From positions 1 to 34,314 of the IMG/VR virus record IMGVR_UViG_3300029319_000215: a DNA stretch of 34,314 nt, one strand, 5' to 3'. A program made the position numbers and the translations under genes. Of this stretch, positions 18,551 to 34,314 are shown one piece after another; positions within the stretch are counted from its first letter, which is position 1; every line of letters starts with the position of its first letter. The notes under the pieces were generated by a model that did not search any database, was not told where the DNA came from, and worked only from the letters and a program-made list of their open reading frames with translations. Origin of the DNA: a virus.

Positions 18551-21500
18551 ATGAGTTTTCAGATTAATACCGACCAACAGCGAATAGAAGCTAGCGGAAC
18601 AAAAGCGACGGGAAATTGGATCAATGCCACATACAGCAGGACATCAGCTGGCGTTGGTAACATCGTTTCTATCGCACACGGTATAGTAGGGACAGAAAAA
18701 TTATACATTGACTTTACGAGTGGTGGTGAAGTAGATGGTGAATTTACAGTAACTAAGGTAGATGACGATAATTTAAGTTTTGTAGGATCAGCAAATAGTG
18801 TAATTACTGCGGGTGCGACTCTAGCATACAAAAGAGTAAGATCATTAAGTATTCAAGGAGATGAGTCACTAGAAATATCTGTTGGTCAGGGTGCATTAGA
18901 AAAAGACGCATTATTCATAAACAAAAACGCACAAGAAAACGTCAGAGTTGGTATCAATACTACCGATCCTCAGTTTGAACTAGACGTTGAAGGGCAGATT
19001 AGAACGACTCGTTCTATCATTTCTGATACTGCACAGGTAACAAACCTTGATATTGACACTATCATCAACCCTGCGTTGAATCTTCGTGCTCCAAACCTTG
19101 TTAACTTTGAAGATACAGACGTTACAAGTCCTACTTTTGGAACTACATTCTTTCCACAAGCAGACACACCACCTCTAAGTGACCAGTCCAGAAGGGTTGC
19201 TACCACTGATTTTGTATACCAAGTTGCTACTAATGACACTGGTGGTCGTGTATATGTATCACAAACTATTGGTAATGATGAAAACGATGGTCGTTCAGCT
19301 GCAAGACCAGTTCAAACAGTTAAGAAGGCAGCACAAATTGCTTACGGATTGCAGAAAGCAGTTCCAGATCCAAGTGACGAATACGTAACTATTATTGTAT
19401 CTGGTGGTGAGTATCTAGAAGATAACCCTATATCACTTCCTAGAAACTGTTCACTTGTTGGTGACAACTTAAGAAGAGTTATTCTTAGACCTCAGAACCA
19501 AGATCGTCACATGATCAAGGCGTCTAATGAAACATATATTTTTGGTGTTGTATTCAGAGACGCATTACAGAACTCATCAGACCCACAAAGCACAGTAATT
19601 CATACTTGGAAGTATGCCTTTGTGTTTGACGACAAACAAAGATTATACTACGAACCAGAAATAGCACAGATTCCTGCAGTGCCTGGCGACAAGTATCGTG
19701 GTGATAACATATTTAAGATTACATTTACCAACCACACAGGTGATAATGTAACTCTACAAACTGGATACTTTGTACAAGGTGGATCTTCAGGAACACAGGG
19801 TGTGATTCAGGCAGTCAACTTTACAGGTCCTCAAGCATCACCATACTCTACAGGTGACGTAACTGTTCTTATTACATCAGGTGTTAGTGATGTATTCCAA
19901 GACGCTGAAAAAGTATTCTACGATGCAACATCACTTGCTAATATTATTACTGATATTAATAACCCAAGTGTATCAGATAGATTTGACGTTGCAGATGCTG
20001 AGTCATTAAGACCAGAATTAGAGACAATCTCTAACCAGATTTATCAACACACTGTTGATACAGAAAGAGAAACAGTATCATTTAGAGGCAGTCTTAATTA
20101 TATTGATGTTGCACTTGATAGAATTACAATTACAGGACACGGTTTTGTAACTGGTGATAATGTAGTATACGATAAAGATGAAAATACAAACCCATTGCCA
20201 GGTCTTCTTGATGGCACACGTTATTGGGTAAGAAAGGTAGATGATAATACTATTGAATTGTATGACCTAGAAGCAAATGCTATTGCTGCAACAAGTATAA
20301 CTCAGGGTAAAAAAGATCTTACTGGTGTATCTCCTGACGATAAATTCCATCAGTTGACAACTGGTAATGTGATGCCAGAAGATAATCACATTTATGTTAC
20401 CAATCATCAGTATACAACAGGGGATGGTGTTATCTATCGTGCAGGAAAGATGGGTGCGATAGGTGGTCTTGTTGATGGCACTGCATACTTCGTATATAAA
20501 GAAAGTGATAACTGGTTTAGACTTGCATCATCTGCTGCTAACGCAACACAAAAAGATGCATCTGGTGCTGACGATCCAGTAACATTACCTATAACATCTC
20601 CAGGATTAGGTTTCCAAAGATTTGAATTACAAAACAAGTTGCTATCAATTTCAACTATTGATACCTCAACTAACACTATAGCAACTTATCAAGGTCCTAT
20701 CTTTACTCTTGCTAGTTCTAGTATATCATCTGACTTCCATGATTATGAAGTTGGACAAGAAGTTAACATCTATGGTTTCCAAAACAGTGCAATAAATTTT
20801 GGAACATCAACTAATAGTGCATACACAATTAGTGGTGGATTAATTACAATCCAAATTACTAATGTTGATAACACATTGACAAGTGCCTTCTTTGGTAATA
20901 TGCAAACCCTTGGGCAAGCTGGTGTTACATTCAGTTTTCCTGGTGCTGATGATAGATTTAGTAAGACATATCTTATTGGAAACTGGAGCACAGGATCTGG
21001 AACTCCATCATTACCTGGCAACTCAGATTTAGGTTTAGGATACGCAAGATATAACAGTTCCAATACTACAATTACATTTGTTTTAAAACAAGCAAATATT
21101 GATACTGCTAGTGATGTAACATCATCATCTGGATCTGGCGTTTCTGTTCTTGATAACCTTGCAGATCTTAATGGTAGAAAATATATCACACATCGTATAG
21201 AGCGTGCCGATGGTTACTCACTACAGTTTGTTGTAAGAGCAAACATATCAAATGTTGGAACTTCTATCAACCCAACTGGTAACCAAACTGTTGTTGGTTC
21301 TAATAACTATGTCTTAGCATCTCTACGTAACTCACCATATGGATTTACCAAGATCAATCAGAGTGATAGATTCAGAGATGGTGCTGAAAATATCAAGAGA
21401 AATCAAGAGTTTATTGCAGAGGAGGCAGTTGCATATGTCAAATATTACTATGAATCATCCCTTACTCGTGGTACTGCACTTACTATTGGTGGAACAAATT

Positions 21501-24500
21501 TTGGACAAGTAGCACCAACAGTAGCAAGAGCATTTACATCATTCTCTGTAACTGGTAATAAAGCAGTAATTAAGGTTCAGAAAGGACATAACTTATATCC
21601 TAACTTTAGTCAACACACACCTACCAATGCATCATATACACCTGGCAACGGTAACTTCACAGTAACTGTTAATGGTCATGGATTCCAAGTTGGTGATTTA
21701 ATTAAATTTGATGCGGGTGCAATCGTAATGACTTGTGCCACAGATAGCAACCAGACAAATCATCCATATCCTAGAGGTGGAGACCCTGCATTTGATAGAT
21801 GGTTAAAGATTGATTCTAAAACAACAAATACATTTACTGTTAATGTTGGTGTTTCATCTGATACCTCAACACATGCATTTGTAAGTGCAGGAACTAATTC
21901 TGTTAAGAAAGCACTAACAACTGTAACTATTGCGGGTGCAAGTAACTCATCATTAAATGGAACTTATGGTATTAGCGACATATATGATGATAGAGAATTT
22001 ACCATAGATCTACATGATAGTTCATTAAATGGTCAGACTGGAACTGGTGGAACATTTACAGATCTACAACAACCATTTAGAACTCCAAATAGTCTTCCAG
22101 TAGATAACAAATACGGTGATGTCTCTGAGTTACTATTTGGTAACGCAGATATGATTGCAGATTATGCAGTCAATAAAATGCTTGCTGCAAATCCAAGTTA
22201 TACAATACCTACAGGTAACACTGCATGCTATGATGATGTAAGAGACTTTATACAGAAGTGTGTAGCACATAACCTCAAGTGGGGTGGTAACGACAGAGTA
22301 TATGATCAGGCAAAATTCTATATTGATCCTGGCTTCTCATTAACAAGAGATCGTTATGCAGAAGTATTTGGATATGCAAAAGATGCTTGTATTTTAGCAG
22401 GAAGAAATCTACCTCTATACAGAAATCCTTACGCTACAAAATTACAGTATTATCATAATGCAACTTTAGATGTAGGTGCAGGAACAGTTCGTCGTGACGC
22501 TGCAACTCTAATACAGAAGAACTTAAATCTAATTGCATTTGAATCAGTTCAAAGATACAACATTGATAACCCATCACACAATGTGCCTGGTGGAAATCAG
22601 AACTGTATTGATGACGTATTAGATCTATTAAGAACTGTTGTATACAACCTAGCATACGGTGGTAACGAACAAGTTTATGATGCTGCTGCCTTATATACAT
22701 CATCCACATTCCTAGACGGGGAAGAGACAGAATCCCGTGCAGTATTCCAGATAGCAAAGACACTTGCTAGAACAGTTGCTATTAGTGACAGCATTGGAAC
22801 TATAGAGGGTAATCATGGATTTACTCAGGTTCTTGATAATAACAATAAAGGAACTACAGTAGAGCAAGGAATTATTGATGACTTCTTCACAATCGTTGAT
22901 ACTGCGATTGCCAACGATAACATGGCACATGCCACTAGAACGGTTGCAACCAATCCTTCCTGTGCAAACGTTATCTCAGCAATAGAAACCTTCTTTAACA
23001 CAGTTACAACAGCGATAGGAAGCGGTTCTACACCTGGCAACGTTAACATTACAAGAACATCTTCATCTGGCGATCAGCAGTGTATTGATGACACAATGAA
23101 GATTCTTAGAGCATTCCAATATGATCTAAGATATGGTGGTAACCAGAAGACTGTAGAAGCAGCAAACTTATACATTTCTGGTGCTAGTGGAGTTCAGCAC
23201 GTTGCAACTGAGGTCACATATACTCGTGCAATATTTGCTGCAGCAAAAGAATTAGCAATAGATGCAATAAGAAATAATTTAGAGCAAGGTCAATTCTCAC
23301 AAATATTACCAGAGGGAAATGGTTCTATTACTGTAGATTCATCTGCACCTGAGTGTGCTAACGTCGTATCCGCATTAGTTACAAACTGGGGTATTCTAGA
23401 CAACGTATTGTCTAGCGGTAATGCATACAGTGGAACAGTAACAAATCCTGATCCTCTAATTACAGAACAAGATGCACAAAAATATAGTTTCCCACTTGTA
23501 AATACATTCCTAGATCTTCCAGTTATTGAAGCATCACCTTACATTCAGAACTCTTCACTTATATCGTTCCTTGGTGGTTCTGGTTGTGAAATTGATGGTG
23601 CTAAAGTTGCTACACCTAACGTTCCTAGACCTGGCTTAAAACAGAATGCACAAGGTGCTACTGTTGCACAGTTTGACCCACAGGGTAAATCAATGGTTGC
23701 AAACGCATTCACCATTATATGTTTTGGTGGAACTGCGTACAACGTAAGTAATGATGGTTATACACAGTTAGTGTCTGTGTTTGCTATCTTCTGTCAGGAC
23801 GGTATCTTAACACAGTCTGGTGGATATGCTTCTGTAACCAACTCTGCATCCAACTTCGGAACATATTCTCTTCGTGCAACTGGATTCAGAGCAGAAGCAT
23901 ATTCATTTGATGTTGGTGTTATTGATTCTATTACAGATGACGTTGATGGCAATGGAGTTGCAACAGGTAGACAAGTTGTACAGGTATCTGGAACAACTCT
24001 AACAGGTATTCCTGTTGAAGATTATATTATCAAAATTGATGGATATACACCTACTGACCCTGCTGTTGAGCACATTATTCTAGAGACAGAACTTGTTTCT
24101 GGTGCACCTGGCACACAGATTGTCGCTAAGATTACAACAAACCGTTCGATGGATTACTCTGATGGTAGTAATCGTTATCAGTCAAATGCTGATCCTAGTT
24201 TTGCTGCAGGAAGTTTACCACTAAGTAATCTTGTTAATGCAACAATTAGATTCCATAGACCATCTGTTACTAACTCCTCATCTCATACTTGGGAATATGC
24301 AGGATCAGGTAACACTTACGCTGCGTTACCACAAAACGGTGGTGTTGGGCAAGGATCAGCATTTGAAGCAGCAGAAGAAAAATTTGGACAGGTTTATACA
24401 TCAGGAACTAACGAGTTTGGTGACTTTAAAGTTGGTAACTTTGTTACAATCTTCAACAGAACTGGTGCTATTAGTTTCGTTGGAACTGTTAGTATCTCTG

Positions 24501-27500
24501 AACTATCATCTATTAAGATTGTTGGTGGTGACATCACAATTACAGGATTCTCATCTGATGATAACTTAGGTGGAACATTTGCATCTGATAGTTTACTACC
24601 TACACAGGCATCTGTTAGAGATTATATTTCAAACAACTTAGGACCTTACCTCAACCAACCATACTCTACAAACGCAGTTCCATCTGCACTTGTTCAGTTA
24701 ACATCATCTGGTAAGATTAACATTGACCAGATCCCTGCTCTACGTCCATTCAATATTACATCTGTTGCATCTACAGCAGAAAGACTTGCTATTGAGGATG
24801 CTAATGCGGGTGACATTGCAATTGAAACAACAGCAACAACATTTGATGTTCCAAATGCATCATTCAATTTATCTAATGATAATATTACAATTGCATCTCA
24901 TGGTGTTAATACTGGAGACTTACTAACATATACACAAGGTTCCAGTCCTGTTGGTGGATTGTCAACTAACGTCAATTACTATGCTATTAAAGTAGATGAC
25001 AATACAATTCAACTTGCAACTACAGAATCAAATGCTAATAGTGGAAATCAAATTGATTTGACTACTGGTGGTGCAGGAACCCATACACTTAAGACTCAAG
25101 GTGTTGCAATATCCTACATCCTTGAAAATGATCTTGAGAGTCAGTTCCTAGCATTCCAACCTAATAGTGCAGTTCAGTTTACTAATGGAAACATTATTGT
25201 TGGTAGTTCTACAACTGCTCGTGGTGTTGTAACCAATTACAATGATGGTCAAATATTTAACTTTGTTATCAGCACAGCTGGAAGTGGATACACTGGTGAT
25301 TTCCCTCTAACAATATCTGCACCTGGTGGATCTGGTGTGCAAGCAGCTGCTACAGCAAACGTTGTTAATGGTGCAGTAACTAAAGTTACTATTACTAATC
25401 CTGGTTCTGGATACTTTACACAACCCACAATACAAGTTCAAACCTCTCCTAGTGGTGCTTCTAATAATGCAGTCATTGCTGCACAAATAGAGGCACGTGT
25501 CAGTATTGATATTGCAAATAATATTAAGTTTGATGCGGGTGACTTTATACTTGATCAAGCAAATGCAAACGAAGGCACAGGAACATACAGTCAAAGTGGC
25601 ACTACCATTACTATCACTGAAAACTCACATGGTTTATCTAACGCTGCTCTAGTATACATTGACTTTACAAGTGGTGGTGCATCTGATGGATTCTATACCA
25701 TCTCACTAATAAATGGTAATCAATATTCTGTAACCTCTGCATCTAGTGGAACCAATAGTGGTAACATGGCAAGGAAGAGAATTATTGACCTTACCAGAGT
25801 TATTAACACATCTGCAACAAACGCTGCAAACTGGACACAGTTAACATCAACAAACATTGATGCTTCTAACATTGTTGCGGGTATTGTTGACCCAGAAAGA
25901 TTAGCGGGTAAAGGTGCTGCAAACTCATTCTCATTCTTACGTGGTGATTCATCATGGGAGTATGCATTACAATCAATTAGACCTACTACACAAGATGCAA
26001 TAGTTATTGGTGGTTCTTTATCAGATAGTAGTTACATTGACAGTATTACAATTACTAATGGTGGAACAGGATATACAAATGGAACTTACCAGAACATTCC
26101 AATGGGCGGTGGTAATGTTTCTATTAGTAGTGATAATGTTGCTCGTGCAACATATATTGTATCTGGTGGAACTATTACATCTGCTACTGTTACTGACGCA
26201 GGAACAGGATATACAGGAGACTTCTCTGTAACCATACCTAGCGAACTTGGTGGTGGTTCTGGTGCAATACTTGCTGCAGTTAAGGGAACAATTAACCGTT
26301 CATTTGGTAATATCGAAATTGATATTAGAAAGGGTAATTCTTTAACATCTAGTGCATTTGTTTATGGTAACTACGGTGTCTTCAGATTTAGAAAAGATGT
26401 TACTAACCAAGCACTTGGTAACCAGACAGAAGGTGGATTTGTCATTGACAATGCAGGAACTGTTTCTATTGATCAAGGTCCTGGCTCTGAACTTAATGCT
26501 GACAGACTAGATGGTAACCAAGGTTCATTCTATCAAGATGCGGGTAACTTAACTCAAGGAACATTAGATCCTGCAAGACTTCTAAACACCACATATGCGA
26601 TATCTATATCAGGTACTGCTGACACTGCAAACTTAGTATTTAACGAGACTGCATCTCTTACATCTAACCCATCTCCTGCACAGGCAGGAAACGGTGTTGG
26701 TGCTGCACTTAGAAATAACAGTGCTGATGGTCTTAATGATGGTGGAACTACACACGGTGTAGTAACCTACAGAAGACAAGCAACTGGTAATGCTTCTACT
26801 CAATTAGGATTTACAGATAACAATAATCTATACATCAGAGGAAACAGTGGTAACGCTGCAGTTTACTCTAACTGGTTCAAGATCTGGTCTGCATCTAACG
26901 ATGGTGCAGGAAGTGGATTGGATGCTGACGTCATGGACGGAAAGCAAGGTCTATGGTATCAGACAGGTTATAACATAGGTGACACACGTGGTGGAATCAA
27001 TGCACCTATTGGTGACATGTTCTTACCAGAAGTTCTTGGTCAAGACAAGATGGTCTTTGAGAACTTCTACGTTAATGACACAGGTAATAAATTTACACTA
27101 TACATTCCAGACTTCCATTGTAATAGTGGTGTTGGTGGTAACATCAACAATGGTGGAACATACACTATCTACTCTGATGTAGGTGCAACTAATAACATTG
27201 GTTCTATCGTAGTTGATAGTTCTGGTGGTGTTCAAGAAAAGACACACACAACTGGTGAGATATATTCATTAGTTACTGGAACAATATCATTTGTAGGTGC
27301 AAATACAAATGCAAACATTTACATCTTCGGACCTAATCCTGGCACAAAATGGACTGTATCTTCATCAAACAAAGTTTCTGGTGGATCTACACAAATATTT
27401 GGATTACGTGATAATGCAAATGGTGCTAAATTACAGATTGGTAAAGCATCAGTATCTACAACACCAACAATAGACTTTAGATCATCTGGTCAAGCACCAA

Positions 27501-28918
27501 ATTATGACGTTCAAATGATTGTCTCTGGTGGTAATGGAACAGATGGTAATGGAACAATCAGATTCAACGCATCAGACTTTACTTTCAATGGTAACACTGT
27601 ATGGCATAGTGGTAACGATGGTTCAACATCTCAGCTAGACGCTCATTACTTAGATGGTTATGTTCAGTCAACATCTGCTACAGGTAATACAATCGCACGT
27701 AGAGATGGATCAGGACACTTAACAGTTAATGACTTAACAGCTGATCAAGGTATTTTCTCAAACAACGGTGCAGGAACATTAAGTCTTGCAGATGGTAATG
27801 GTATTACTCTTGGTAAGTCTACAACTAACACATTAGCATTAAAGGGTAAAGGATCATCCTCTGTTGGTTACGTTAAATTTGGTAATGATAGCAATGCCTT
27901 TGGTTGGAATGGCACACATCTATCCTACAACAACGTATACTTCCGTAGTGGTTATATCGGTATTGGAGAAAGCAATCCTGGTGCACCATTAGAAATTAAG
28001 AGAGATGGAACTGCACTAAACTTATGGGCAGAGTTTACAACAGGTGGAACTAATGATGGTCGTATACAGTTTGGAACCAGTGGCGGTTCTCCACAAATTA
28101 CCTTTGACGATATCGCTAATGATGTTGGATGGGCAATAGGTGTTGATGATGCTAACGTATCATGGTTCTGTATTAAGGGATTCGCAACACCTGGTTCTGT
28201 TGGTTACTTAGCAACTCAAGGTTCTACTGGATCTTGTAACTTAGCAATCTATCAACCTACTGGTAGATGGTTTATCAACAAAGCGGGTTCTACAGGATCT
28301 GGTTCTAGAATAAACGTTGGTGGAACTATTGAAACTGACAGTCAACTTAAATCTACAGTTGCAACTGGAACCGCACCATTGGCAGTAACATCAACTACTA
28401 AAGTTACTAACCTTAACGCAGACTTACTTGATGGTTATACTGCATTGGGTCTTCCATACTTAGGTGGTAGTGTTAACGTTTGGATCTCTGATGATGGTGG
28501 TCAGGAGAGATTCTACTTCTCTAATAATTCTCATACATACTTTAGAACTGGTTCTGATTTCTTCTTTAGGAATAATGGTAACAGTGGTATAGGTTCACTT
28601 AATGATAATGGTTGTTGGACAATTTATAGTGGTAGTGATCAAACTCAGTCAACATACGGTATAGAAGTTAGACAATTAAATGGTCTTAACTTGAATGCAT
28701 CTGAAGGTCTATCATCTGGTCAGAAGTCAACAGTATTAAGAGCTGGTGGAGACAAACAGTGGATTGATAGTTACGGTGTATTCAAGAGAAATAGACAGAC
28801 TGTTGCAGAAAATATTACGGTTGCATCTACTGACAACTGTATGACCGCTGGTCCTATCACTATAAATAATGGAACAACGATAACAATAGCAGACGGTGGT
28901 TCTTGGAGCGTAGTTTAA
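18551..28918 (+). CDS. Giant mosaic tail fibre protein (3455 aa)
   Basis: At 10.4 kb this is the largest gene here. Residues 1-90 form a GHGL-like module (IAHGIVGTEKLYIDFTSGG); a VRVGINTTDPQFELDVEG fibre motif follows at about 130-150. Residues about 233-360 are a beta-helix opening (YVSQTIGNDENDGRSAARP, IIVSGGEYLEDNP, LVGDNLRR). From about 941 to 1620 the sequence turns alpha-helical (NIKRNQEFIAEEAVAYVKYY) with repeated C-x-DD...YNL-x-YGGN motifs. Residues about 1673-1785 form another beta-helix piece (FLGGSGCEIDGAKV, then NDGYTQLVSVFAIFCQDGIL). A QVYTSGTNEFGDFKVGNFV motif, more GHGL and G-x-G-Y modules and four LNAD-x-LDG repeats (26488-28440) lead to the C-terminus, which includes a second GIGESNPGAPLEIKRDG motif. 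No autoprotease motif was noticed. Probably the long tail fibre or its main shaft. Confidence 0.75.
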   Translation: MSFQINTDQQRIEASGTKATGNWINATYSRTSAGVGNIVSIAHGIVGTEKLYIDFTSGGEVDGEFTVTKVDDDNLSFVGSANSVITAGATLAYKRVRSLSIQGDESLEISVGQGALEKDALFINKNAQENVRVGINTTDPQFELDVEGQIRTTRSIISDTAQVTNLDIDTIINPALNLRAPNLVNFEDTDVTSPTFGTTFFPQADTPPLSDQSRRVATTDFVYQVATNDTGGRVYVSQTIGNDENDGRSAARPVQTVKKAAQIAYGLQKAVPDPSDEYVTIIVSGGEYLEDNPISLPRNCSLVGDNLRRVILRPQNQDRHMIKASNETYIFGVVFRDALQNSSDPQSTVIHTWKYAFVFDDKQRLYYEPEIAQIPAVPGDKYRGDNIFKITFTNHTGDNVTLQTGYFVQGGSSGTQGVIQAVNFTGPQASPYSTGDVTVLITSGVSDVFQDAEKVFYDATSLANIITDINNPSVSDRFDVADAESLRPELETISNQIYQHTVDTERETVSFRGSLNYIDVALDRITITGHGFVTGDNVVYDKDENTNPLPGLLDGTRYWVRKVDDNTIELYDLEANAIAATSITQGKKDLTGVSPDDKFHQLTTGNVMPEDNHIYVTNHQYTTGDGVIYRAGKMGAIGGLVDGTAYFVYKESDNWFRLASSAANATQKDASGADDPVTLPITSPGLGFQRFELQNKLLSISTIDTSTNTIATYQGPIFTLASSSISSDFHDYEVGQEVNIYGFQNSAINFGTSTNSAYTISGGLITIQITNVDNTLTSAFFGNMQTLGQAGVTFSFPGADDRFSKTYLIGNWSTGSGTPSLPGNSDLGLGYARYNSSNTTITFVLKQANIDTASDVTSSSGSGVSVLDNLADLNGRKYITHRIERADGYSLQFVVRANISNVGTSINPTGNQTVVGSNNYVLASLRNSPYGFTKINQSDRFRDGAENIKRNQEFIAEEAVAYVKYYYESSLTRGTALTIGGTNFGQVAPTVARAFTSFSVTGNKAVIKVQKGHNLYPNFSQHTPTNASYTPGNGNFTVTVNGHGFQVGDLIKFDAGAIVMTCATDSNQTNHPYPRGGDPAFDRWLKIDSKTTNTFTVNVGVSSDTSTHAFVSAGTNSVKKALTTVTIAGASNSSLNGTYGISDIYDDREFTIDLHDSSLNGQTGTGGTFTDLQQPFRTPNSLPVDNKYGDVSELLFGNADMIADYAVNKMLAANPSYTIPTGNTACYDDVRDFIQKCVAHNLKWGGNDRVYDQAKFYIDPGFSLTRDRYAEVFGYAKDACILAGRNLPLYRNPYATKLQYYHNATLDVGAGTVRRDAATLIQKNLNLIAFESVQRYNIDNPSHNVPGGNQNCIDDVLDLLRTVVYNLAYGGNEQVYDAAALYTSSTFLDGEETESRAVFQIAKTLARTVAISDSIGTIEGNHGFTQVLDNNNKGTTVEQGIIDDFFTIVDTAIANDNMAHATRTVATNPSCANVISAIETFFNTVTTAIGSGSTPGNVNITRTSSSGDQQCIDDTMKILRAFQYDLRYGGNQKTVEAANLYISGASGVQHVATEVTYTRAIFAAAKELAIDAIRNNLEQGQFSQILPEGNGSITVDSSAPECANVVSALVTNWGILDNVLSSGNAYSGTVTNPDPLITEQDAQKYSFPLVNTFLDLPVIEASPYIQNSSLISFLGGSGCEIDGAKVATPNVPRPGLKQNAQGATVAQFDPQGKSMVANAFTIICFGGTAYNVSNDGYTQLVSVFAIFCQDGILTQSGGYASVTNSASNFGTYSLRATGFRAEAYSFDVGVIDSITDDVDGNGVATGRQVVQVSGTTLTGIPVEDYIIKIDGYTPTDPAVEHIILETELVSGAPGTQIVAKITTNRSMDYSDGSNRYQSNADPSFAAGSLPLSNLVNATIRFHRPSVTNSSSHTWEYAGSGNTYAALPQNGGVGQGSAFEAAEEKFGQVYTSGTNEFGDFKVGNFVTIFNRTGAISFVGTVSISELSSIKIVGGDITITGFSSDDNLGGTFASDSLLPTQASVRDYISNNLGPYLNQPYSTNAVPSALVQLTSSGKINIDQIPALRPFNITSVASTAERLAIEDANAGDIAIETTATTFDVPNASFNLSNDNITIASHGVNTGDLLTYTQGSSPVGGLSTNVNYYAIKVDDNTIQLATTESNANSGNQIDLTTGGAGTHTLKTQGVAISYILENDLESQFLAFQPNSAVQFTNGNIIVGSSTTARGVVTNYNDGQIFNFVISTAGSGYTGDFPLTISAPGGSGVQAAATANVVNGAVTKVTITNPGSGYFTQPTIQVQTSPSGASNNAVIAAQIEARVSIDIANNIKFDAGDFILDQANANEGTGTYSQSGTTITITENSHGLSNAALVYIDFTSGGASDGFYTISLINGNQYSVTSASSGTNSGNMARKRIIDLTRVINTSATNAANWTQLTSTNIDASNIVAGIVDPERLAGKGAANSFSFLRGDSSWEYALQSIRPTTQDAIVIGGSLSDSSYIDSITITNGGTGYTNGTYQNIPMGGGNVSISSDNVARATYIVSGGTITSATVTDAGTGYTGDFSVTIPSELGGGSGAILAAVKGTINRSFGNIEIDIRKGNSLTSSAFVYGNYGVFRFRKDVTNQALGNQTEGGFVIDNAGTVSIDQGPGSELNADRLDGNQGSFYQDAGNLTQGTLDPARLLNTTYAISISGTADTANLVFNETASLTSNPSPAQAGNGVGAALRNNSADGLNDGGTTHGVVTYRRQATGNASTQLGFTDNNNLYIRGNSGNAAVYSNWFKIWSASNDGAGSGLDADVMDGKQGLWYQTGYNIGDTRGGINAPIGDMFLPEVLGQDKMVFENFYVNDTGNKFTLYIPDFHCNSGVGGNINNGGTYTIYSDVGATNNIGSIVVDSSGGVQEKTHTTGEIYSLVTGTISFVGANTNANIYIFGPNPGTKWTVSSSNKVSGGSTQIFGLRDNANGAKLQIGKASVSTTPTIDFRSSGQAPNYDVQMIVSGGNGTDGNGTIRFNASDFTFNGNTVWHSGNDGSTSQLDAHYLDGYVQSTSATGNTIARRDGSGHLTVNDLTADQGIFSNNGAGTLSLADGNGITLGKSTTNTLALKGKGSSSVGYVKFGNDSNAFGWNGTHLSYNNVYFRSGYIGIGESNPGAPLEIKRDGTALNLWAEFTTGGTNDGRIQFGTSGGSPQITFDDIANDVGWAIGVDDANVSWFCIKGFATPGSVGYLATQGSTGSCNLAIYQPTGRWFINKAGSTGSGSRINVGGTIETDSQLKSTVATGTAPLAVTSTTKVTNLNADLLDGYTALGLPYLGGSVNVWISDDGGQERFYFSNNSHTYFRTGSDFFFRNNGNSGIGSLNDNGCWTIYSGSDQTQSTYGIEVRQLNGLNLNASEGLSSGQKSTVLRAGGDKQWIDSYGVFKRNRQTVAENITVASTDNCMTAGPITINNGTTITIADGGSWSVV
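22140..23420 (+). repeat. Alpha-helical C-x-DD / YGGN repeats inside the 3455-aa fibre
   Basis: Three units carry C-x-DD followed about 20 residues later by a (Y/W)GGN motif and an AxxY: CYDDVRDFI (Cys about 1226, KWGGNDRVYDQAKFYI), CIDDVLDLL (Cys about 1352, AYGGNEQVYDAAALY) and CIDDTMKIL (Cys about 1511, RYGGNQKTVEAANLYI). Two half-units read P-x-CANV-x-SA (Cys about 1471 and 1602). Spacing between equivalent cysteines is 126-159 residues. Confidence 0.75.
26488..28440 (+). repeat. Four (L)NAD-x-LDG fibre repeats near the C-terminus of the 3455-aa fibre
   Basis: LNADRLDGNQGSFYQ (26488), LDADVMDGKQGLWYQ (26918), LDAHYLDGY (27634) and LNADLLDGY (28412) are copies of a motif common in trimeric phage tail fibres. 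They mark the distal shaft. Confidence 0.7.
28861..28868 (+). promoter_or_regulatory. T4 late promoter, exact consensus TATAAATA
   Basis: TATAAATA is an exact match to the T4 late consensus. It lies inside the last codons of the giant fibre gene, 52 bases before the ATG at 28920, where the adhesin cassette begins. A start a few bases downstream gives a leader of about 45 bases that contains GGAG (28905-28908). The coding frame also needs an Ile-Asn-Asn here, so chance is possible. Confidence 0.5.
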
Positions 28919-28919
28919 A

Positions 28920-29789
28920 ATGAGTACTATTAGCGTTCATGACGTAAAGGGTTTTAGCACATATAACAATACTGTTAGAATTCCAAACGGACATAAACTT
29001 GACATTGCAGGAGATTTAAAAATTCCTAGTCATACAACAGCAACACGACCTACTGCAGAGGTTGGAGCGATAGGTTTCAATACAACATTGGAGATATTGG
29101 AAATATATGTAGAAGTTAATGGAGTAGCTGAATGGTATGCTTTATCTAAAGCAGCACCTGATGGAGAAACTGCGGACTCAGCTGCAGCATCTGGATATCA
29201 ATTAGCACAAGATTATCCAGAAAAGTCTAGTGGATATTATTGGATTAAGTCTCAATCTATGCCTCAAGCACTTCAGATGTGGGTAGACATGGTTGAAGAG
29301 GGTGGTGGATATGACATGTATGCTATTACTGGTGGAACTAGTGTTAACGATGCAAGAAATAGTCACAGTGGTACTGCTCTTGGTTTAGACTTAGTATATC
29401 CAAGATCTAAAGAACATTGGAGAGCACAAGTAAACTTTGTTCGTAATCAACTTGGTCAAACTGGCGGTAACCTAAGAAGTTACTTTGTAACGCCAGGAAA
29501 AATCTGGAATACTAGTGCAGGAAACTATACTGGTTATGTAATGAGAAATCCACAATTCTATGGTAACGGTGTCCCCGCAAATAGTTGGAGAACTGGAGAT
29601 GGTGGAAGATGGTGGTTGAGAGACAATACTTATTCTGAACCAAACGGAAACTACACACCATATTCCTTCTTGTATTTCTGGAGTAGTTACCCACCTGATA
29701 ATTACAATGGTCAAGACATGTTGTTTGACGATGCAGGTACAAGATCTACTGGAGGCAACTACTTAGTATCCACTAATGCAAAACCTTAA
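28920..29789 (+). CDS. Short tail fibre/adhesin with fibrinogen-like C-terminal domain (289 aa)
   Basis: First of four short adhesin genes. Residues 1-80 are an attachment-type module (VRIPNGHKLDIAGDLKIP, RPTAEVGAIGFNTTLEILEI and a following Trp-Tyr), similar in layout to the end of the 2414-residue fibre. From about residue 103, SGYYWIKSQSMPQALQMWVD and EEGGGYDMYAI echo the opening of fibrinogen-related domains (G-x-YWI-x-P ... VYCDM-x-x-x-GGGW). GGRWWLRDN...PNGNYTPYSF near 226-245 echoes their conserved WW...NG-x-Y segment. Fibrinogen-like heads bind glycans or acetylated groups in other systems, so receptor binding is inferred. The cysteines of animal fibrinogen domains are absent. GGAG at 28905-28908 precedes the ATG. 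Confidence 0.6.
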   Translation: MSTISVHDVKGFSTYNNTVRIPNGHKLDIAGDLKIPSHTTATRPTAEVGAIGFNTTLEILEIYVEVNGVAEWYALSKAAPDGETADSAAASGYQLAQDYPEKSSGYYWIKSQSMPQALQMWVDMVEEGGGYDMYAITGGTSVNDARNSHSGTALGLDLVYPRSKEHWRAQVNFVRNQLGQTGGNLRSYFVTPGKIWNTSAGNYTGYVMRNPQFYGNGVPANSWRTGDGGRWWLRDNTYSEPNGNYTPYSFLYFWSSYPPDNYNGQDMLFDDAGTRSTGGNYLVSTNAKP

Positions 29790-29794
29790 TTATT

Positions 29795-30073
29795 ATGGAA
29801 TATCCAACTACATCAAAGTCTGACTTATCTACATGGATGGAGGAGAAAAATCTCCAAATGAGTCAGTATCTTCATAAAGCAGAAACTGAATATACTCTAG
29901 ATTTACTACATAAACTATGGGAAGATCTTGATTCTGGAGTTATTCCAAATAAAGCAGCATCTAAGTTTTATCAAGAGGTGAAGTCAAGAAAGGATGCAAA
30001 TCCAGCTCCCTTTGACATCGAAGAATATAAAGCTATAGATTTTTCCAAAATTATTGAAGAGTTACCTGACTAA
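29795..30073 (+). CDS. Small helical protein within the adhesin cassette (92 aa)
   Basis: Not recognised. Acidic, Cys-free and predicted almost wholly alpha-helical (LSTWMEEKNLQMSQYLHKAE, YTLDLLHKLWEDLDSG, KAASKFYQEVKSRKD), with a C-terminal acidic tail (SKIIEELPD). It lies 5 bases after one adhesin gene and 2 bases before the next, so it is surely co-transcribed with them. Helical proteins of this size next to fibre genes are often assembly chaperones (compare the T4 gp38/gp57 idea), but no sequence match to those was seen. Confidence 0.6.
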   Translation: MEYPTTSKSDLSTWMEEKNLQMSQYLHKAETEYTLDLLHKLWEDLDSGVIPNKAASKFYQEVKSRKDANPAPFDIEEYKAIDFSKIIEELPD

Positions 30074-30075
30074 CA

Positions 30076-31119
30076 ATGGCAAGAATTAAAGTTGACGAAA
30101 TTACAAATTTAGCAGAGAATGGAAATGTATCATTCCCTAATGGTGGTGCTAGTTTTTCGGGGAACGTAAGTGTTGGTGGTTCTCTTACTGCTGACAGTGT
30201 TAACGCTAGTATCGCACTAAAAAATTTTACTAATGCTGAATTACCCTCATCTGGTAATACAGTAGGAACTCTTGTTTGGAATTCTGATGTTCAAGAAGTT
30301 CAAGTTTGGGATGGAGAGGCTTGGGTAAAACTCAACAATCCCTACAAAGATGTTGATGCTACATCAGTAGAGGCATTTTGGGATGGTGCTGCTGACCAAG
30401 TTAGCGGTAATGTTTGGTTTTCTAAAAGACAACATCCAAACGTTTCTCATGCCAACTGTACTATGATTAACAATCCTGTTTACAGTCCTTCTGTGCCAGG
30501 TGGAGATGGTTCTATTGGATTCTGGAATTTTAATGGTAGTAACCAGTATGGTTGGATCAATGATCTAAACTATTCTAATGGTGGTAATCATGGTCCTGAT
30601 AATAATGGAAGACTATCAAATTTTACAATGGGCATCTGGTTTAGAACTACATATGGAACTCCTAACACAGGTGGTGGTTGGGACTCTGGAAACTGGTCAT
30701 GGTTAGACTGGGATAGATCAGAAGTTATTTCTTGGAACATAGGTACTGCGGGTAAACTACAGTTTTCTGGTTATGCTAACACAGGTGGTTATTGGGATAT
30801 CACAGGTGATAGGACATATAATGATGGTCAGTGGCATTTTGGAGTTTGCACAGTATCTTCAACTAACAACCAAGTAAAATTTTATGGAGACGGAACTGCA
30901 GACGGAACACGTAGTGTAAACCACTCTTACTTCGGTGCAAGAACTAGACGTTGGGGATTTATTGGTGATGGTTCAGAAGCGGGTGGTAATAATAGTAGTA
31001 GAAACAACGTTTACTATGATGGTGACATTGCACAACTATTTTTAATCAACGAAGTTTGGACTGATGAAAAGATATTAACTCATTACAATAAAACTAAAGG
31101 ACGTTTTGGTCTTTCATAA
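30076..31119 (+). CDS. Short tail fibre/adhesin with LamG-like C-terminal domain (347 aa)
   Basis: Residues 1-90 form a module shared with the next gene: MARIKVDEIT, VSFPNGGASFSGNVSVGGSL, then VGTLVWNSDVQEVQVWDGEA and a Trp. From about residue 150 to the end is a concanavalin/LamG-like lectin domain. It starts at IGFWNFNGSNQYGWI, continues with a FTMGIWFRT strand and WHFGVCTVSSTNNQVKFYGD, and closes with IAQLFLINEVWTDEKILTHY and NKTKGRFG, the usual ending of such domains. Carbohydrate binding on the host surface is the likely role. GAAGAG (30056-30061) may act as ribosome-binding site, 14 bases from the ATG. Confidence 0.7.
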   Translation: MARIKVDEITNLAENGNVSFPNGGASFSGNVSVGGSLTADSVNASIALKNFTNAELPSSGNTVGTLVWNSDVQEVQVWDGEAWVKLNNPYKDVDATSVEAFWDGAADQVSGNVWFSKRQHPNVSHANCTMINNPVYSPSVPGGDGSIGFWNFNGSNQYGWINDLNYSNGGNHGPDNNGRLSNFTMGIWFRTTYGTPNTGGGWDSGNWSWLDWDRSEVISWNIGTAGKLQFSGYANTGGYWDITGDRTYNDGQWHFGVCTVSSTNNQVKFYGDGTADGTRSVNHSYFGARTRRWGFIGDGSEAGGNNSSRNNVYYDGDIAQLFLINEVWTDEKILTHYNKTKGRFGLS

Positions 31120-31121
31120 AA

Positions 31122-32096
31122 ATGGCATCCAAAGTTAAAGTTAACGAATTTACAACAACTTCGGGAAGTGGATCAGTAGCATTTGCAAAAGGTGGTGCTG
31201 ATATGACTGGAGATATGAGTGTTAATGGCACGTTATCTTTAGATTCTTTGGGTGGTGCGATTACTGTAAAATCATATACACAAGCTGGAAAACCATCAAA
31301 TCCTGCAATAGGAACTGTTATTTGGAATACAAGCACTAACAGAATAGAAATTTGGAATGGAAATTTATGGACAAGAATGGATGAACCTGGCGGACAGTTT
31401 CCTACCAATGGGTTAGTAGTTCATCTAGATGCAACAGATACAAACTCATATAATGGTTCTGGAACTGTTTGGACAGACCTTAGTGGAAATGGTAACAATT
31501 TTAATATTGTTGCAAGTGCACATAGAGGTGCTACAGGAGATAAAAAAGCATACATGGACTTCCAAGGAAGTTATGGAATGGCAAAAAATAGTGGAGATAT
31601 TTCTCTAAGTGGTGATGTTACTTATGCTTGCGTAACTAGAATACGAAATTCTACAAGCACATGGAGAACACTTACTAGATCATACAGTGCAGACCATCAT
31701 GTTATTGTACAATCTGGTGCATGGAATATTGGAATGTATGACAATAACAGTGTAGGATTTAGGGGAACTGGATTTTCACAACAGAATTTATCAGGTTATA
31801 GAAGTAATAGTTTTATGACAATGATATGGAGATGGAATGCTACAACTGATAGTCCAACGTATGAGTTTAGTGTAAATGGAGAAGTTCTAGGAACTATTAG
31901 AGATTCTAATGCCAGATACAATAGAGGTTTTGGATCTATTGGTGGATATCATTCAAACAATCAAACACCTAGTAGTGGATCTCAGTATTGGGGAGACATA
32001 AGAATGTTTGCAGCATGGAATAGAAGAATAACTAACTCAGAGGTAGTTGAAATAGTAAATGCTATGAGGAGTAGAGGGTATCTACAAGACCCATAA
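31122..32096 (+). CDS. Short tail fibre/adhesin with a second LamG-like domain (324 aa)
   Basis: The N-terminal module is paralogous to the preceding gene: VKVNEFTTTSGSGSVAFAKG, GDMSVNGTLSLDSLGGAI, IGTVIWNTSTNRIEIWNG and a following Trp. The C-terminal domain (about 98-324) opens with NGLVVHLDATDTNSYNGSG and WTDLSGNGNNF, a typical LamG/concanavalin start. It continues with a FMTMIWRWN strand and a SVNGEVLGTIRDS hairpin, and ends in IRMFAAWNRRITNSEVVEI. The LamG part is clearly different in sequence from that of the neighbour, so only the N-terminal module is closely shared. The ATG lies 2 bases after the previous stop. Confidence 0.7.
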   Translation: MASKVKVNEFTTTSGSGSVAFAKGGADMTGDMSVNGTLSLDSLGGAITVKSYTQAGKPSNPAIGTVIWNTSTNRIEIWNGNLWTRMDEPGGQFPTNGLVVHLDATDTNSYNGSGTVWTDLSGNGNNFNIVASAHRGATGDKKAYMDFQGSYGMAKNSGDISLSGDVTYACVTRIRNSTSTWRTLTRSYSADHHVIVQSGAWNIGMYDNNSVGFRGTGFSQQNLSGYRSNSFMTMIWRWNATTDSPTYEFSVNGEVLGTIRDSNARYNRGFGSIGGYHSNNQTPSSGSQYWGDIRMFAAWNRRITNSEVVEIVNAMRSRGYLQDP

Positions 32097-32201
32097 TCAA
32101 AATTGGTTTTTAGATTTAAGAATAACAGAAAAAATTTTTTGGGTAATTTTTCCCTATAAGGTTTTTCGTCTAAATAAGATTGTATAACTATACTTTATGA
32201 T
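32097..32201 (+). other. Intergenic spacer of 105 bases with A/T tracts
   Basis: Longest non-coding gap in the window. It holds an A6T6 tract (32129-32140). A weak AT-only 7-bp stem is possible (32130-32136 with 32145-32151), and a GGG...CCC pair lies at 32141-32154. I see no convincing GC-rich terminator hairpin. The downstream part carries the CTAAATA late-promoter motif. Confidence 0.5.
32170..32176 (+). promoter_or_regulatory. Late promoter candidate (CTAAATA)
   Basis: CTAAATA lies in a real intergenic gap, 25 bases before the ATG at 32202. It matches the heptamer at 8308 and the T4-type late motif in six of seven positions. It would give the last fibrinogen-like adhesin its own transcript. 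Confidence 0.5.
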
Positions 32202-33164
32202 ATGGGAACCGTCAACGCAAATCTATTCTCAGCGAGCACTGGTGTAAAAGTTCCATCTGTAAATGGCACAGGAAATTATCCATCAGGTCTAGGGACTGGT
32301 GATGCAGGATTTATAATTTATGATTCTTCATTAAAGACATTAGTTTTTTGGAATGGAACTCAATGGAATGAGGTTCGTTTCTTAGGTCCTCAGAGTGGAG
32401 CAGATCCAAACTCTGCTATAGTAGATTTTCCTGCATGGATATCTACAGGTCCTGCATCAGGAAACTACTGGGTAAAACCATCTGGATATGGTGGTGCTGC
32501 AGAACAAGTTTATATTGCTGTAAATGACTCTTCTCAATCAGGAATAACATCTGGTGGAGTATGGATTAGAATAAGATATTCGCAAAGTTACTATTCAAGA
32601 GGTGATGCTTGGAGAGGTCAAGGTGGTCTAAGTAACCCAGCTAACCAAAGTTCAACTGCATATAGTGGAAACTTTTCATTTGAACAAAGTGATGCTTGGA
32701 TTGCAGCATTATTGCAACAAGGTAATTTTACAGAAATTAGACAGATATTTGAGTCATGGGGATATGGATCTGTTGGTTGGACGTATGGATCTGGATATAT
32801 GGAATCTAGAGGATTTGATGATGTAAACTATACAAGATGGGGAACGAACTCAAACATTGTTGGTAAAGATTACACTAGAGTCAGTGGTATGTCTCATAGC
32901 ACAAGTTCAATCAATGGTTCATTTAGTAACCCAACTAGTAGAAACACTGACCAAACAGATAGAAACGATAGCACTTGGAGATATGGTAGGTTCTACTTTA
33001 GATATGTTCCGCCAGGTGGTTCTTCAGCATTGCCATTACCTATAAAAGGTATATGGAACGCTGACGTTGATGGTGGATCTGAGCAAAGATACTTCCCATT
33101 CCGTGATTCAGCTGGTGGATGGACTGGTGAAGGTGACAGTAATATTTGGGTCAAGGTTGGTTAA
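32202..33164 (+). CDS. Short tail fibre/adhesin with fibrinogen-like domain (320 aa)
   Basis: Residues 1-60 are the compact attachment module (GVKVPSVNGTG, then AGFIIYDSSLKTLVFWNGTQ and a following Trp). The rest resembles a fibrinogen-related domain: SGNYWVKPSGYGGAAEQVYI (about 85-104), SGGVWIRIRYSQ, and an aromatic-rich middle (WGYGSVGWTYGSGY). The C-terminus (FPFRDSAGGWTGEGDSNIWV) is Gly/Trp-rich, as in phage fibrinogen-like heads. A helical insertion AWIAALLQQGNFTEIRQIFE stands near 165-184. It has its own late promoter and a 105-base upstream gap, unlike the tightly packed genes before it. The Shine-Dalgarno is weak. Receptor binding is inferred. The -35 element of the next promoter overlaps its end. 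Confidence 0.6.
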   Translation: MGTVNANLFSASTGVKVPSVNGTGNYPSGLGTGDAGFIIYDSSLKTLVFWNGTQWNEVRFLGPQSGADPNSAIVDFPAWISTGPASGNYWVKPSGYGGAAEQVYIAVNDSSQSGITSGGVWIRIRYSQSYYSRGDAWRGQGGLSNPANQSSTAYSGNFSFEQSDAWIAALLQQGNFTEIRQIFESWGYGSVGWTYGSGYMESRGFDDVNYTRWGTNSNIVGKDYTRVSGMSHSTSSINGSFSNPTSRNTDQTDRNDSTWRYGRFYFRYVPPGGSSALPLPIKGIWNADVDGGSEQRYFPFRDSAGGWTGEGDSNIWVKVG

Positions 33165-33185
33165 TTATAATTTTTGTGCTATAAT
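33157..33185 (+). promoter_or_regulatory. Sigma70-like extended -10 promoter
   Basis: TTGGTT (33157-33162), a 17-base spacer and TATAAT (33180-33185) preceded by TGC form an extended -10 promoter with a perfect -10 hexamer. It lies just before the coiled-coil gene at 33214. This differs from the late motifs elsewhere and would be read by the unmodified host polymerase. The -35 overlaps the stop codon of the upstream adhesin. Confidence 0.5.
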
Positions 33186-33213
33186 ATATACTATACTCTC
33201 GTAATTCTAAAAC

Positions 33214-33393
33214 ATGGACGCTGAAAAAATGGTCAAAGAGTTTACTGACCAATTGAAAGAACAAAAAGCAACAATCGTAGAACTGGAAAAACAACTAAGC
33301 ACTCGTAAAGAGCAAACGTTGAGACTTGAAGGTGCAATCGAAGCACTTAACATGACACTCAAAGAAGAAGATGCCACTGAAGAAATCAAGTGA
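33214..33393 (+). CDS. Small coiled-coil protein (59 aa)
   Basis: ATG at 33214, TGA at 33391-33393. Almost the whole protein is a charged amphipathic helix (FTDQLKEQKATIVELEKQLS, then RLEGAIEALNMTLKEED) with heptad-spaced Leu/Ile, so a coiled coil is expected. No known family is recognised. The Shine-Dalgarno is poor. Its 3' end overlaps the next gene by 23 bases in another frame. It follows a sigma70-like promoter rather than a late motif, so it may be expressed early or constitutively. A regulatory or assembly role is a guess. Confidence 0.55.
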   Translation: MDAEKMVKEFTDQLKEQKATIVELEKQLSTRKEQTLRLEGAIEALNMTLKEEDATEEIK

Positions 33394-33706
33394 ACTAAGA
33401 CAACAAGAACACGTAAATTCTAGGCAGTTCCATATTAAATTTGATGGAACTGCAGAGACGTGCCCTTACAAAGTGGGAGATCTGTATGATGGTAGAAGTA
33501 TCATATCAATAGGATTCTCCTCAAATTTGTATGGACACTCATATCATTTAATTGTAGAAAGAGATAGAACACACCTAAGAACTAAGTTTGTGTTTGACGA
33601 AAAGCACGATATAAAGTTCTGCAAACCTGTGGAAAGAATGGGTAAGCAAATTTCAGAAGGTGAAGTTCAAAAACTGTTAGCAAAGGCAGGAGACGGAACT
33701 TCATAA
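33371..33706 (+). CDS. Unrecognised protein (111 aa)
   Basis: ATG at 33371 follows a purine-rich AAAGAAGAAG. The start lies inside the coiled-coil gene (23-base overlap). The N-terminus is basic and polar (LKKSSELRQQEHVNSRQ). The middle reads as a small beta-barrel-like fold (FHIKFDG, YKVGDLYDGRSIISIGF, YHLIVERDR, TKFVFDE), followed by a helical C-terminus (ISEGEVQKLLAKAG). Two cysteines (CPYK and FCKP) are not in a metal-binding arrangement I recognise. Its TAA stop is part of the next late promoter. Function unknown. Confidence 0.6.
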   Translation: MPLKKSSELRQQEHVNSRQFHIKFDGTAETCPYKVGDLYDGRSIISIGFSSNLYGHSYHLIVERDRTHLRTKFVFDEKHDIKFCKPVERMGKQISEGEVQKLLAKAGDGTS

Positions 33707-33709
33707 ATA
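33702..33709 (+). promoter_or_regulatory. T4-like late promoter (CATAAATA)
   Basis: Identical to the motif at 17973 and again overlapping the stop codon of the gene before it. It lies about 28 bases before the ATG at 33737 (16 bases before a possible TTG at 33725). Confidence 0.55.
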
Positions 33710-33736
33710 TATCTGAAGGACTTATTGTACCAAAGG

Positions 33737-34314
33737 ATGAAGAAGGTAATAGTAAGGATCAATGACAACTATAGTATAGATCAAGCATGTGCAGAGATCT
33801 TGAAACTATATGGTTACTTATCCTTTGTCGAACAATTCAGATCATTTCAGATGCTTGCTTTTGATTGCCCTGCAGCGTATCAAAGCAATCTTATAAATCA
33901 ACTACGAGCATTAAACGTAGTTAAAAATGCTACATGGGATAAAGAAGTATATCAACTTGATCCTATGCCAGAAATGACATCCTTTACTATGGAAACACCA
34001 GAGAGTGTGACCCTTAATGATGTTGGAGAAACTACTGCGACAAGCAATACCAGAAGTCTAACAACAACTAGTAGTGGAACGATATATGTAAAAGTTCAGA
34101 ATATAAGTGGTAGTGATTACTTTGTGTTCTCACAAACATCTGGTGGAACGTATTCTCGATATTATAATTACAGTGGTTTCATGCAAGGTGGAACCTATAC
34201 ATTTGATCAAAGTGACTCAAGTAATAGTGGACATCCATTTAGATTTTCAGAGACACAAGATGGAACACATACCACAGGTGGAACAGGAGAATTAACTGCA
34301 GGAGTAAGTGTTAC
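33737..34314 (+). CDS. I9-propeptide-like plus cupredoxin-like protein, 3' end missing
   Basis: ATG at 33737; the frame is open to the window end (192 codons). Residues about 2-75 follow the beta-alpha-beta-beta-alpha-beta order of the subtilisin-propeptide/inhibitor I9 fold: KVIVRI strand, SIDQACAEILKLYG helix, FVEQFRSFQMLAFDC hairpin, AAYQSNLINQLRAL helix, NVVKNATWDKEV strand. After a Thr/Ser-rich linker, residues from about 116 (IYVKVQNISGSDYFVF, GGTYTFDQSDSSNSGHPFRF, DGTH) match a cupredoxin-like domain I know from marine phage and bacterial proteins. Its expected C-x-x-H-x-x-x-M ligand part would lie past the window end. An alternative start is TTG at 33725 with GAAGGA (33715-33720) 4 bases upstream, adding four residues; the ATG has no well-spaced Shine-Dalgarno. 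Downstream could be a protease or adhesin. Function uncertain. Confidence 0.6.
   Translation, partial: MKKVIVRINDNYSIDQACAEILKLYGYLSFVEQFRSFQMLAFDCPAAYQSNLINQLRALNVVKNATWDKEVYQLDPMPEMTSFTMETPESVTLNDVGETTATSNTRSLTTTSSGTIYVKVQNISGSDYFVFSQTSGGTYSRYYNYSGFMQGGTYTFDQSDSSNSGHPFRFSETQDGTHTTGGTGELTAGVSV

What the first reader, a model, noticed from the sequence alone, without database searches (positions are those of the whole stretch)
28920..33164. Cassette of four short adhesins with a shared N-terminal module and exchangeable lectin-type heads
Four consecutive fibre genes each open with a 60-90 residue module ending in a G-x-(I/L)-(W/Y/F)-(N/D)...(I/V)-x-(V/I/F)-W-(N/D)-G-x-x-W type motif: VGTLVWNSDVQEVQVWDGEA and IGTVIWNTSTNRIEIWNG in the two LamG genes, AGFIIYDSSLKTLVFWNGTQ in the last, and a looser AIGFNTTLEILEI in the first. 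The heads differ: fibrinogen-like, LamG-like, a divergent LamG-like, fibrinogen-like. The same module also occurs near the end of the 2414-aa giant fibre (RITGAIRFNSTQLQFEGFNG). This looks like a set of interchangeable receptor-binding tips plugging into one common socket, a possible host-range locus.
Basis: partly seen in the sequence, partly recalled or inferred. Interest (0 to 1): 0.62.

Follow-up and report, generated by a model that had tools for sequence, protein, structure and literature searches.

The report
Slot-tagged swappable adhesins of a cyanophage
A virus of the ocean bacterium Prochlorococcus carries a row of small surface-gripping proteins whose gripping ends are exchanged between viruses, while the first few dozen residues stay matched to each gene's place in the row, so each place seems to have its own plug rather than one shared socket.

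Summary
The window is a fragment of a P-HM1/P-HM2/MED4-213-like Prochlorococcus myovirus. Four adhesin genes (F1 28920-29789, F3 30076-31119, F4 31122-32096, F5 32202-33164) lie between a conserved giant fibre and a conserved small gene; a 92-aa gene separates F1 from F3. All four share an N-terminal beta-meander (profile-profile probability 98-99%) followed by different heads: fibrinogen-like (F1, weak), LamG (F3), unassigned (F4), procollagen-propeptide/fibrinogen-like (F5).

Across 118 loci carrying a flanking gene, island content changes while the flanks stay. The 'common socket' needs correcting: the shared meander resembles Mtd_N and collagen XV/XVIII trimerization modules, and the 20-36 residues before it differ by position. 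Slot-A anchors are alike behind different heads (mean 0.65) and unlike last-slot anchors (0.11); nearest neighbours share the slot in 52 of 55 proteins (2 of 5000 head-grouped shuffles as good). Heads change slots: F5's head (73% identical) sits on a slot-A anchor in L032.

Best reading: position tag, trimerizing meander, exchangeable head; one attachment point per slot is inferred. Host-range control is untested; three MED4-infecting isolates share no adhesin head. The locus lies in the known hypervariable host-recognition cluster.

The parts
18551..28918 (+). Giant tail fibre, conserved left flank of the island (PHM1_097 / PHM2_096 homologue)
   Evidence: 77-85% identical segments in P-HM1 and P-HM2; phrog_5342 tail fiber
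28862..28868 (+). Candidate late promoter (TATAAATA at 28861-28868) 51 bp before F1
   Evidence: One of only 4 ATAAATA in the window, all + and just before genes; NATAAATA is the S-PM2 late promoter (PMC2984593)
28920..29789 (+). F1, slot A adhesin, 289 aa, fibrinogen-like head
28920..29027 (+). F1 slot-A anchor, residues 1-36
   Evidence: 50-69% identical in slot-A proteins with other heads
29028..29159 (+). F1 shared beta-meander, residues 37-80
   Evidence: profile comparison; three strands in the F1 model, pLDDT 74-78 there
29160..29786 (+). F1 head, fibrinogen-like
   Evidence: FIBCD1 profile match E=0.0033, two collinear stretches; 87% identical in L116
29795..30073 (+). 92-aa gene of unknown function between F1 and F3
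   Evidence: phrog_20715/phrog_1787; homologues in other islands just before a slot B/C adhesin
30076..31119 (+). F3, slot B adhesin, 347 aa, LamG head
   Evidence: Laminin_G_3 above cut-off
30076..30345 (+). F3 anchor (KVDEIT type, about residues 1-37) and meander
   Evidence: first 36 residues 67-69% identical in P-HM2 098 and L032-L034, whose remainder is unrelated
31122..32096 (+). F4, slot B adhesin, 324 aa, head of unassigned fold (phrog_25721)
   Evidence: N-module 35% identical to F3
32170..32176 (+). CTAAATA, 26 bp before F5, possible weak promoter
   Evidence: speculative
32202..33164 (+). F5, last-slot adhesin, 320 aa, procollagen-propeptide/fibrinogen-like head
   Evidence: model pLDDT 61; VIA Z 9.2
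32202..32381 (+). F5 last-slot anchor (residues 1-20) and meander (21-60)
   Evidence: meander residues 15-59 align to Mtd 5-48 and CBA120 TSP3 583-623
33214..33393 (+). 59-aa coiled-coil-like ORF, homologue of the 61-aa gene that closes the islands of relatives
   Evidence: position as T4-GC 517 in P-HM1
33371..33706 (+). Conserved right flank, 111 aa (T4-GC 518)
   Evidence: 85-91% identical in P-HM1, P-HM2, MED4-213

Best explanation
The locus is an adhesin array with a three-part protein plan. Each gene encodes (1) an N-terminal tag of about 20-36 residues whose sequence depends on the gene's place in the array, (2) a small beta-meander that is common to all and probably trimerizes the protein, and (3) a C-terminal receptor-binding head drawn from a pool of fibrinogen/procollagen-propeptide-like, LamG-like and other heads. 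Phages exchange heads, meander-plus-head, or whole genes while the tag and both flanking genes stay, so the particle presents a changing set of heads on fixed attachment points. Shown by sequence: the shared meander, the slot-dependent tags, the different heads, the change of heads between relatives, the movement of a head between slots. Inferred: trimerization, presence in the virion, a separate physical attachment point for each tag, binding to host surface glycans, any effect on host range.
For: Meander shared and similar in the F5 model to Mtd residues 5-48 (Z 4.3, rmsd 2.2, 41 aa), CBA120 TSP3 (rmsd 1.4, 39 aa, 26% identity) and the collagen XV trimerization domain; profile match to a Gp49 chain in the PDB; weak Mtd_N and DUF7360 Pfam matches. 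Slot-dependent tags: 28-aa similarity between different head families 0.65 within slot A, 0.26 within the last slot, 0.11 between slots; nearest neighbour in the same slot 52 of 55, shuffled 30.2 +- 4.3, and 2 of 5000 when whole head families are shuffled. Head changes: islands between conserved flanks; F1 anchor 53-64% identical to L030, L127, L086, P-HM2 and L032 slot-A proteins whose heads fall in other clusters. Head moving: F5 head 73% identical on a slot-A anchor in L032. Two breakpoints: L030 shares meander and head but not the anchor with F5; L116 shares anchor and head but not the meander with F1. Virion: S-PM2p092-094, three proteins with the same N-region in the same place, are annotated virion structural proteins, and a study reports MS of S-PM2 virions (cited in PMC3037559).
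Against: The trimerization match is of low Z on a 40-residue domain and from a monomer model of mean pLDDT 61. Last-slot anchors are less alike than slot-A anchors, and the three H15 proteins break the rule. Slots were defined by order in metagenome contigs, many related to each other. The slot-A gene is absent in several islands whose giant fibre end is still about 80% like the window's, so no partner for the tag is identified. No proteomics of this phage. Three MED4 isolates share no head.
Confidence: 0.65

Rival explanations
1. One common socket with interchangeable tips: all N-modules dock in the same kind of site and the anchor differences are neutral drift.
For: The meander is common to all, and slot A and B N-regions align over their full length. 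Heads do move between slots.
Against: Anchors are conserved within slot A across unrelated heads (0.65) but not between slots (0.11); drift would follow phylogeny, not position.
Confidence: 0.15
2. The proteins form one composite branched fibre: each adhesin docks on the previous one, and the tags reflect protein-protein order within that complex rather than separate sites on the baseplate.
For: Tags follow gene order; CBA120-type tailspike complexes work this way (general knowledge); a headless 85-aa N-module under purifying selection sits between two adhesins in L016-L023, as a structural adaptor would.
Against: Islands lacking slot A or with a single adhesin exist, so a strict chain is not needed.
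Confidence: 0.25
3. The genes are head-decorating or non-virion proteins, not tail adhesins.
For: Some relatives are filed by PHROGs under 'head and packaging, virion structural protein'.
Against: That category is a loose label; the genes follow the giant tail fibre and precede neck genes, in the region where T4 has its baseplate fibres, and relatives are annotated tail fiber or virion structural protein.
Confidence: 0.08

Closest known systems
Host recognition cluster (HRC) of pelagimyophages and cyanomyophages (PMC7029224)
   Same: Same place (between VrlC and the neck genes), hypervariable, with tail fibres and concanavalin A, Mtd and YadA domains
   Different: The published account describes the region, not a per-slot tag, the meander/head division, or heads moving between slots
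Metaviromic islands of marine phages (PMC3909814)
   Same: Variable islands with tail fibre, lectin-like, fibrinogen-like and Fe(II)-oxygenase genes
   Different: Based on read recruitment; no module boundaries
Mtd of Bordetella phage BPP-1
   Same: N-terminal beta-prism that trimerizes, C-terminal receptor-binding lectin domain (general knowledge); F5 meander aligns to Mtd N-terminus
   Different: Mtd is diversified by a retroelement; here the heads are other folds and whole modules are exchanged
Branched tailspike complex of phage CBA120 (TSP1-4)
   Same: Several neighbouring receptor-binding proteins with different docking N-termini (general knowledge); TSP3 fragment resembles the meander
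   Different: CBA120 heads are enzymes; docking domains here are 20-36 residues, with unknown partners
Island between PHM1_097 and PHM1_103 in P-HM1 / P-HM2 (PMC3037559)
   Same: Direct relatives of this locus
   Different: The paper notes clustered non-shared hypothetical genes, not their adhesin architecture

Membership tests
Host recognition cluster of marine T4-like phages | Lies between VrlC and the neck genes | tested here: met
   VrlC homologue at 1444-8082; gp13-gp15 follow the right flank in P-HM1
Host recognition cluster of marine T4-like phages | Gene content varies between close relatives | tested here: met
   Island 1.8-8.7 kb, different genes between conserved flanks
Mtd (BPP-1 tropism determinant) | Mtd_N domain | tested here: inconclusive
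   3 of 27 modules match PF18454 at E up to 0.1, best 0.0044, below cut-off; F5 meander Z 4.3
Mtd (BPP-1 tropism determinant) | Template/variable repeat pair of a diversity-generating retroelement nearby | tested here: not met
   No direct repeat over 34 nt in 28400-34314; reverse transcriptase elsewhere in the genome not tested
LamG / concanavalin-like lectin (F3) | Pfam Laminin_G_3 above its cut-off | tested here: met
   28.7 bits, cut-off 27.6
LamG / concanavalin-like lectin (F4) | Pfam Laminin_G_3 match | tested here: inconclusive
   No match in F4 or two relatives; fold not predicted
Fibrinogen-related domain (F1) | Profile match with the GGGW and WW...NG.Y motifs | tested here: inconclusive
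   FIBCD1 E=0.0033 with two collinear stretches; no Pfam match; model poor
Fibrillar procollagen C-propeptide / fibrinogen-related fold (F5) | Fold similarity over most of the head | tested here: met
   Z 9.2, rmsd 4.0, 177 residues, well above other rows; Foldseek best E 0.005
Multi-RBP branched complex | Docking of adhesins into one complex through N-terminal domains | not testable with these tools
   No multimer prediction available

The most novel reading that the evidence does not exclude
A positional address code for adhesins: short N-terminal tags specify which of several distinct attachment points an otherwise interchangeable trimeric adhesin occupies, letting phages move heads between positions, with headless modules used as fillers or adaptors.
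Probability: 0.35. Interest if true: 0.62.

Novelty: new variant of a known kind. Interest (0 to 1): 0.45.

Why it matters
Receptor-binding proteins of Prochlorococcus myoviruses are mostly hypothetical genes. A simple rule (position tag, shared trimer module, exchangeable head) would let adhesins and their heads be recognized in cyanophage genomes and metagenomes, and makes the question of which adhesin does what directly testable with isolates such as P-HM1, P-HM2 and MED4-213.

Tried and rejected
A scan with F1 alone found no contig. F5 has no match in isolated phages at E 1e-5 and none by profile in the PDB; F4 has none in the PDB. The F1 model is too poor to use (pLDDT 41), so it was not searched. 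Diversity-generating retroelement: no repeat pair in the island. Tandem or long repeats as recombination sites: none found. First slot test counted the sericin-like H3 genes as first-slot when slot A was missing; repeated without them. A motif pattern match alone was not taken as evidence, since chance matches also occur inside heads. Whether the S-TIM4 evolution experiment mutated the homologous genes could not be read from the main text. The Clokie 2008 S-PM2 proteome paper is not held.

Full report
What the window is. The 34,314-base window is a virus record. Its genes are 77-99% identical to, and in the same order as, those of the Prochlorococcus MED4 phages P-HM1, P-HM2 and MED4-213 outside the gp7-like gene (about 56-71%) and the island discussed here. 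It runs from before VrlC (1444-8082) to the start of the T4-GC 519 gene. It therefore covers most of the region called the host recognition cluster in marine myophages (PMC7029224).

The observation. The four ORFs are there and all carry the motif in their N-terminal part. Profiles of the N-regions of slot A (next to the giant fibre), slot B (middle) and slot C (last) match each other at 98-99% probability; control stretches stay at or below 1.2%. The copy in the 2414-aa protein is supported mainly against slot A (95%). That protein belongs to a baseplate wedge family. A 92-aa gene separates the first and second adhesins.

The heads. F3 has a LamG head above the Pfam cut-off. F1 matches the fibrinogen domain of FIBCD1 in two collinear stretches (E=0.0033). 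The F5 model (mean pLDDT 61) aligns over 177 residues to the procollagen C-propeptide at Z 9.2, with fibrinogen domains next at about Z 4. F4 is unassigned. Heads of related islands include Fibrinogen_C (above cut-off, L127), Laminin_G_3 (L116 twice, L141) and a glycine-rich domain followed by a weak COLFI match (L086).

The island in relatives. Contigs were collected by the flanking genes rather than by the adhesins. Of 118 loci with a flank, 42 have both (some are overlapping loci of the same contig). Between the flanks the island is 1.8-8.7 kb and its content changes. Order: giant fibre, slot A adhesin (may be absent), slot B (LamG adhesins in the window and L128; a four-gene cassette with a 389-aa lead gene in many others; or nothing), slot C adhesin, small genes, 61-aa gene, flank. 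L128 has close relatives of F3 (65%) and F4 (56% over the part present), but a P-HM2-type head in slot A instead of F1's: a natural exchange at a single slot.

Anchor and position. The 28-residue anchors were compared only between proteins with different head families: within slot A mean similarity 0.65, within the last slot 0.26, between slots 0.11. The nearest neighbour is in the same slot for 52 of 55 proteins; shuffled labels give 30.2 +- 4.3, and only 2 of 5000 shuffles that keep head families together do as well. The three exceptions are one family (H15). Slots were read from gene order, not from the anchor itself.

Breakpoints. F1 and L116: anchor 69%, meander 33%, head 87% identical. 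F5 and L030: anchor 20%, meander 56%, head 76%. F5 and L032: head 73% on a slot-A anchor, meander 26%. So exchange can occur on either side of the meander.

The meander. In the F5 model residues 15-59 align with the N-terminus of Mtd (Z 4.3, rmsd 2.2), a piece of CBA120 TSP3 (rmsd 1.4) and the collagen XV trimerization domain. A profile of 28 N-regions matches a Gp49 chain in the PDB (i-Evalue 0.0022), and single members match Mtd_N and DUF7360 weakly. These are small-domain matches; trimerization is an inference.

Function. S-PM2 has three such proteins in the same place, annotated virion structural proteins; the underlying paper was not readable here. P-HM1 and P-HM2 share a slot-A head (75%), P-HM1 and MED4-213 share a last-slot head (84%), and no head is common to all three. 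All three infect MED4, so no single adhesin head of this island is necessary for that host. This does not exclude a role in wider host range.

Verdict. The 'one socket' idea is best replaced by position-specific tags plus a shared trimer-like module. The general phenomenon (variable host-recognition island, exchangeable receptor-binding tips) is known; the tag-by-position pattern appears not to have been described in the papers I could read.

Noticed in passing
islands of related loci, e.g. L058:7226-9800, L141:10302-12528, L027:6598-9503: At least 30 of 88 small non-adhesin island ORFs match 2OG-Fe(II) oxygenase families, plus one sulfotransferase. They sit beside adhesin genes; the window's island has none. 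Modification of the adhesins is one untested idea.
   Followed up: partly
window 29795-30073; L116:12274-12552, L144:6112-6399, L097:3173-3517, L102:2229-2603: The 92-aa gene family recurs just before a slot B or C adhesin; function unknown, an assembly helper is possible.
   Followed up: partly
L018:2633-2890, L016:5747-6004, L020:6840-7097, L022:6978-7235, L023:6780-7037: A stand-alone 85-aa N-module without head, between two adhesins with F3-type heads, with changes mostly at third codon positions.
   Followed up: partly
window 8293, 17974, 28862, 33703: ATAAATA occurs only four times in the window (11 expected), always on the + strand and 15-52 bp before a gene; it fits the NATAAATA late promoter of S-PM2.
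   Followed up: yes
L016:4701-7086, L020:5794-8188, L022:5929-8326, L023:5713-8122: Two adhesins with F3-type LamG heads (60-81% identical to F3) in one island, with different N-regions.
   Followed up: partly
L104:2006-3115: A last-slot adhesin head (H8) with a weak Amidase_2 match, possibly a wall-degrading rather than binding head.
   Followed up: no
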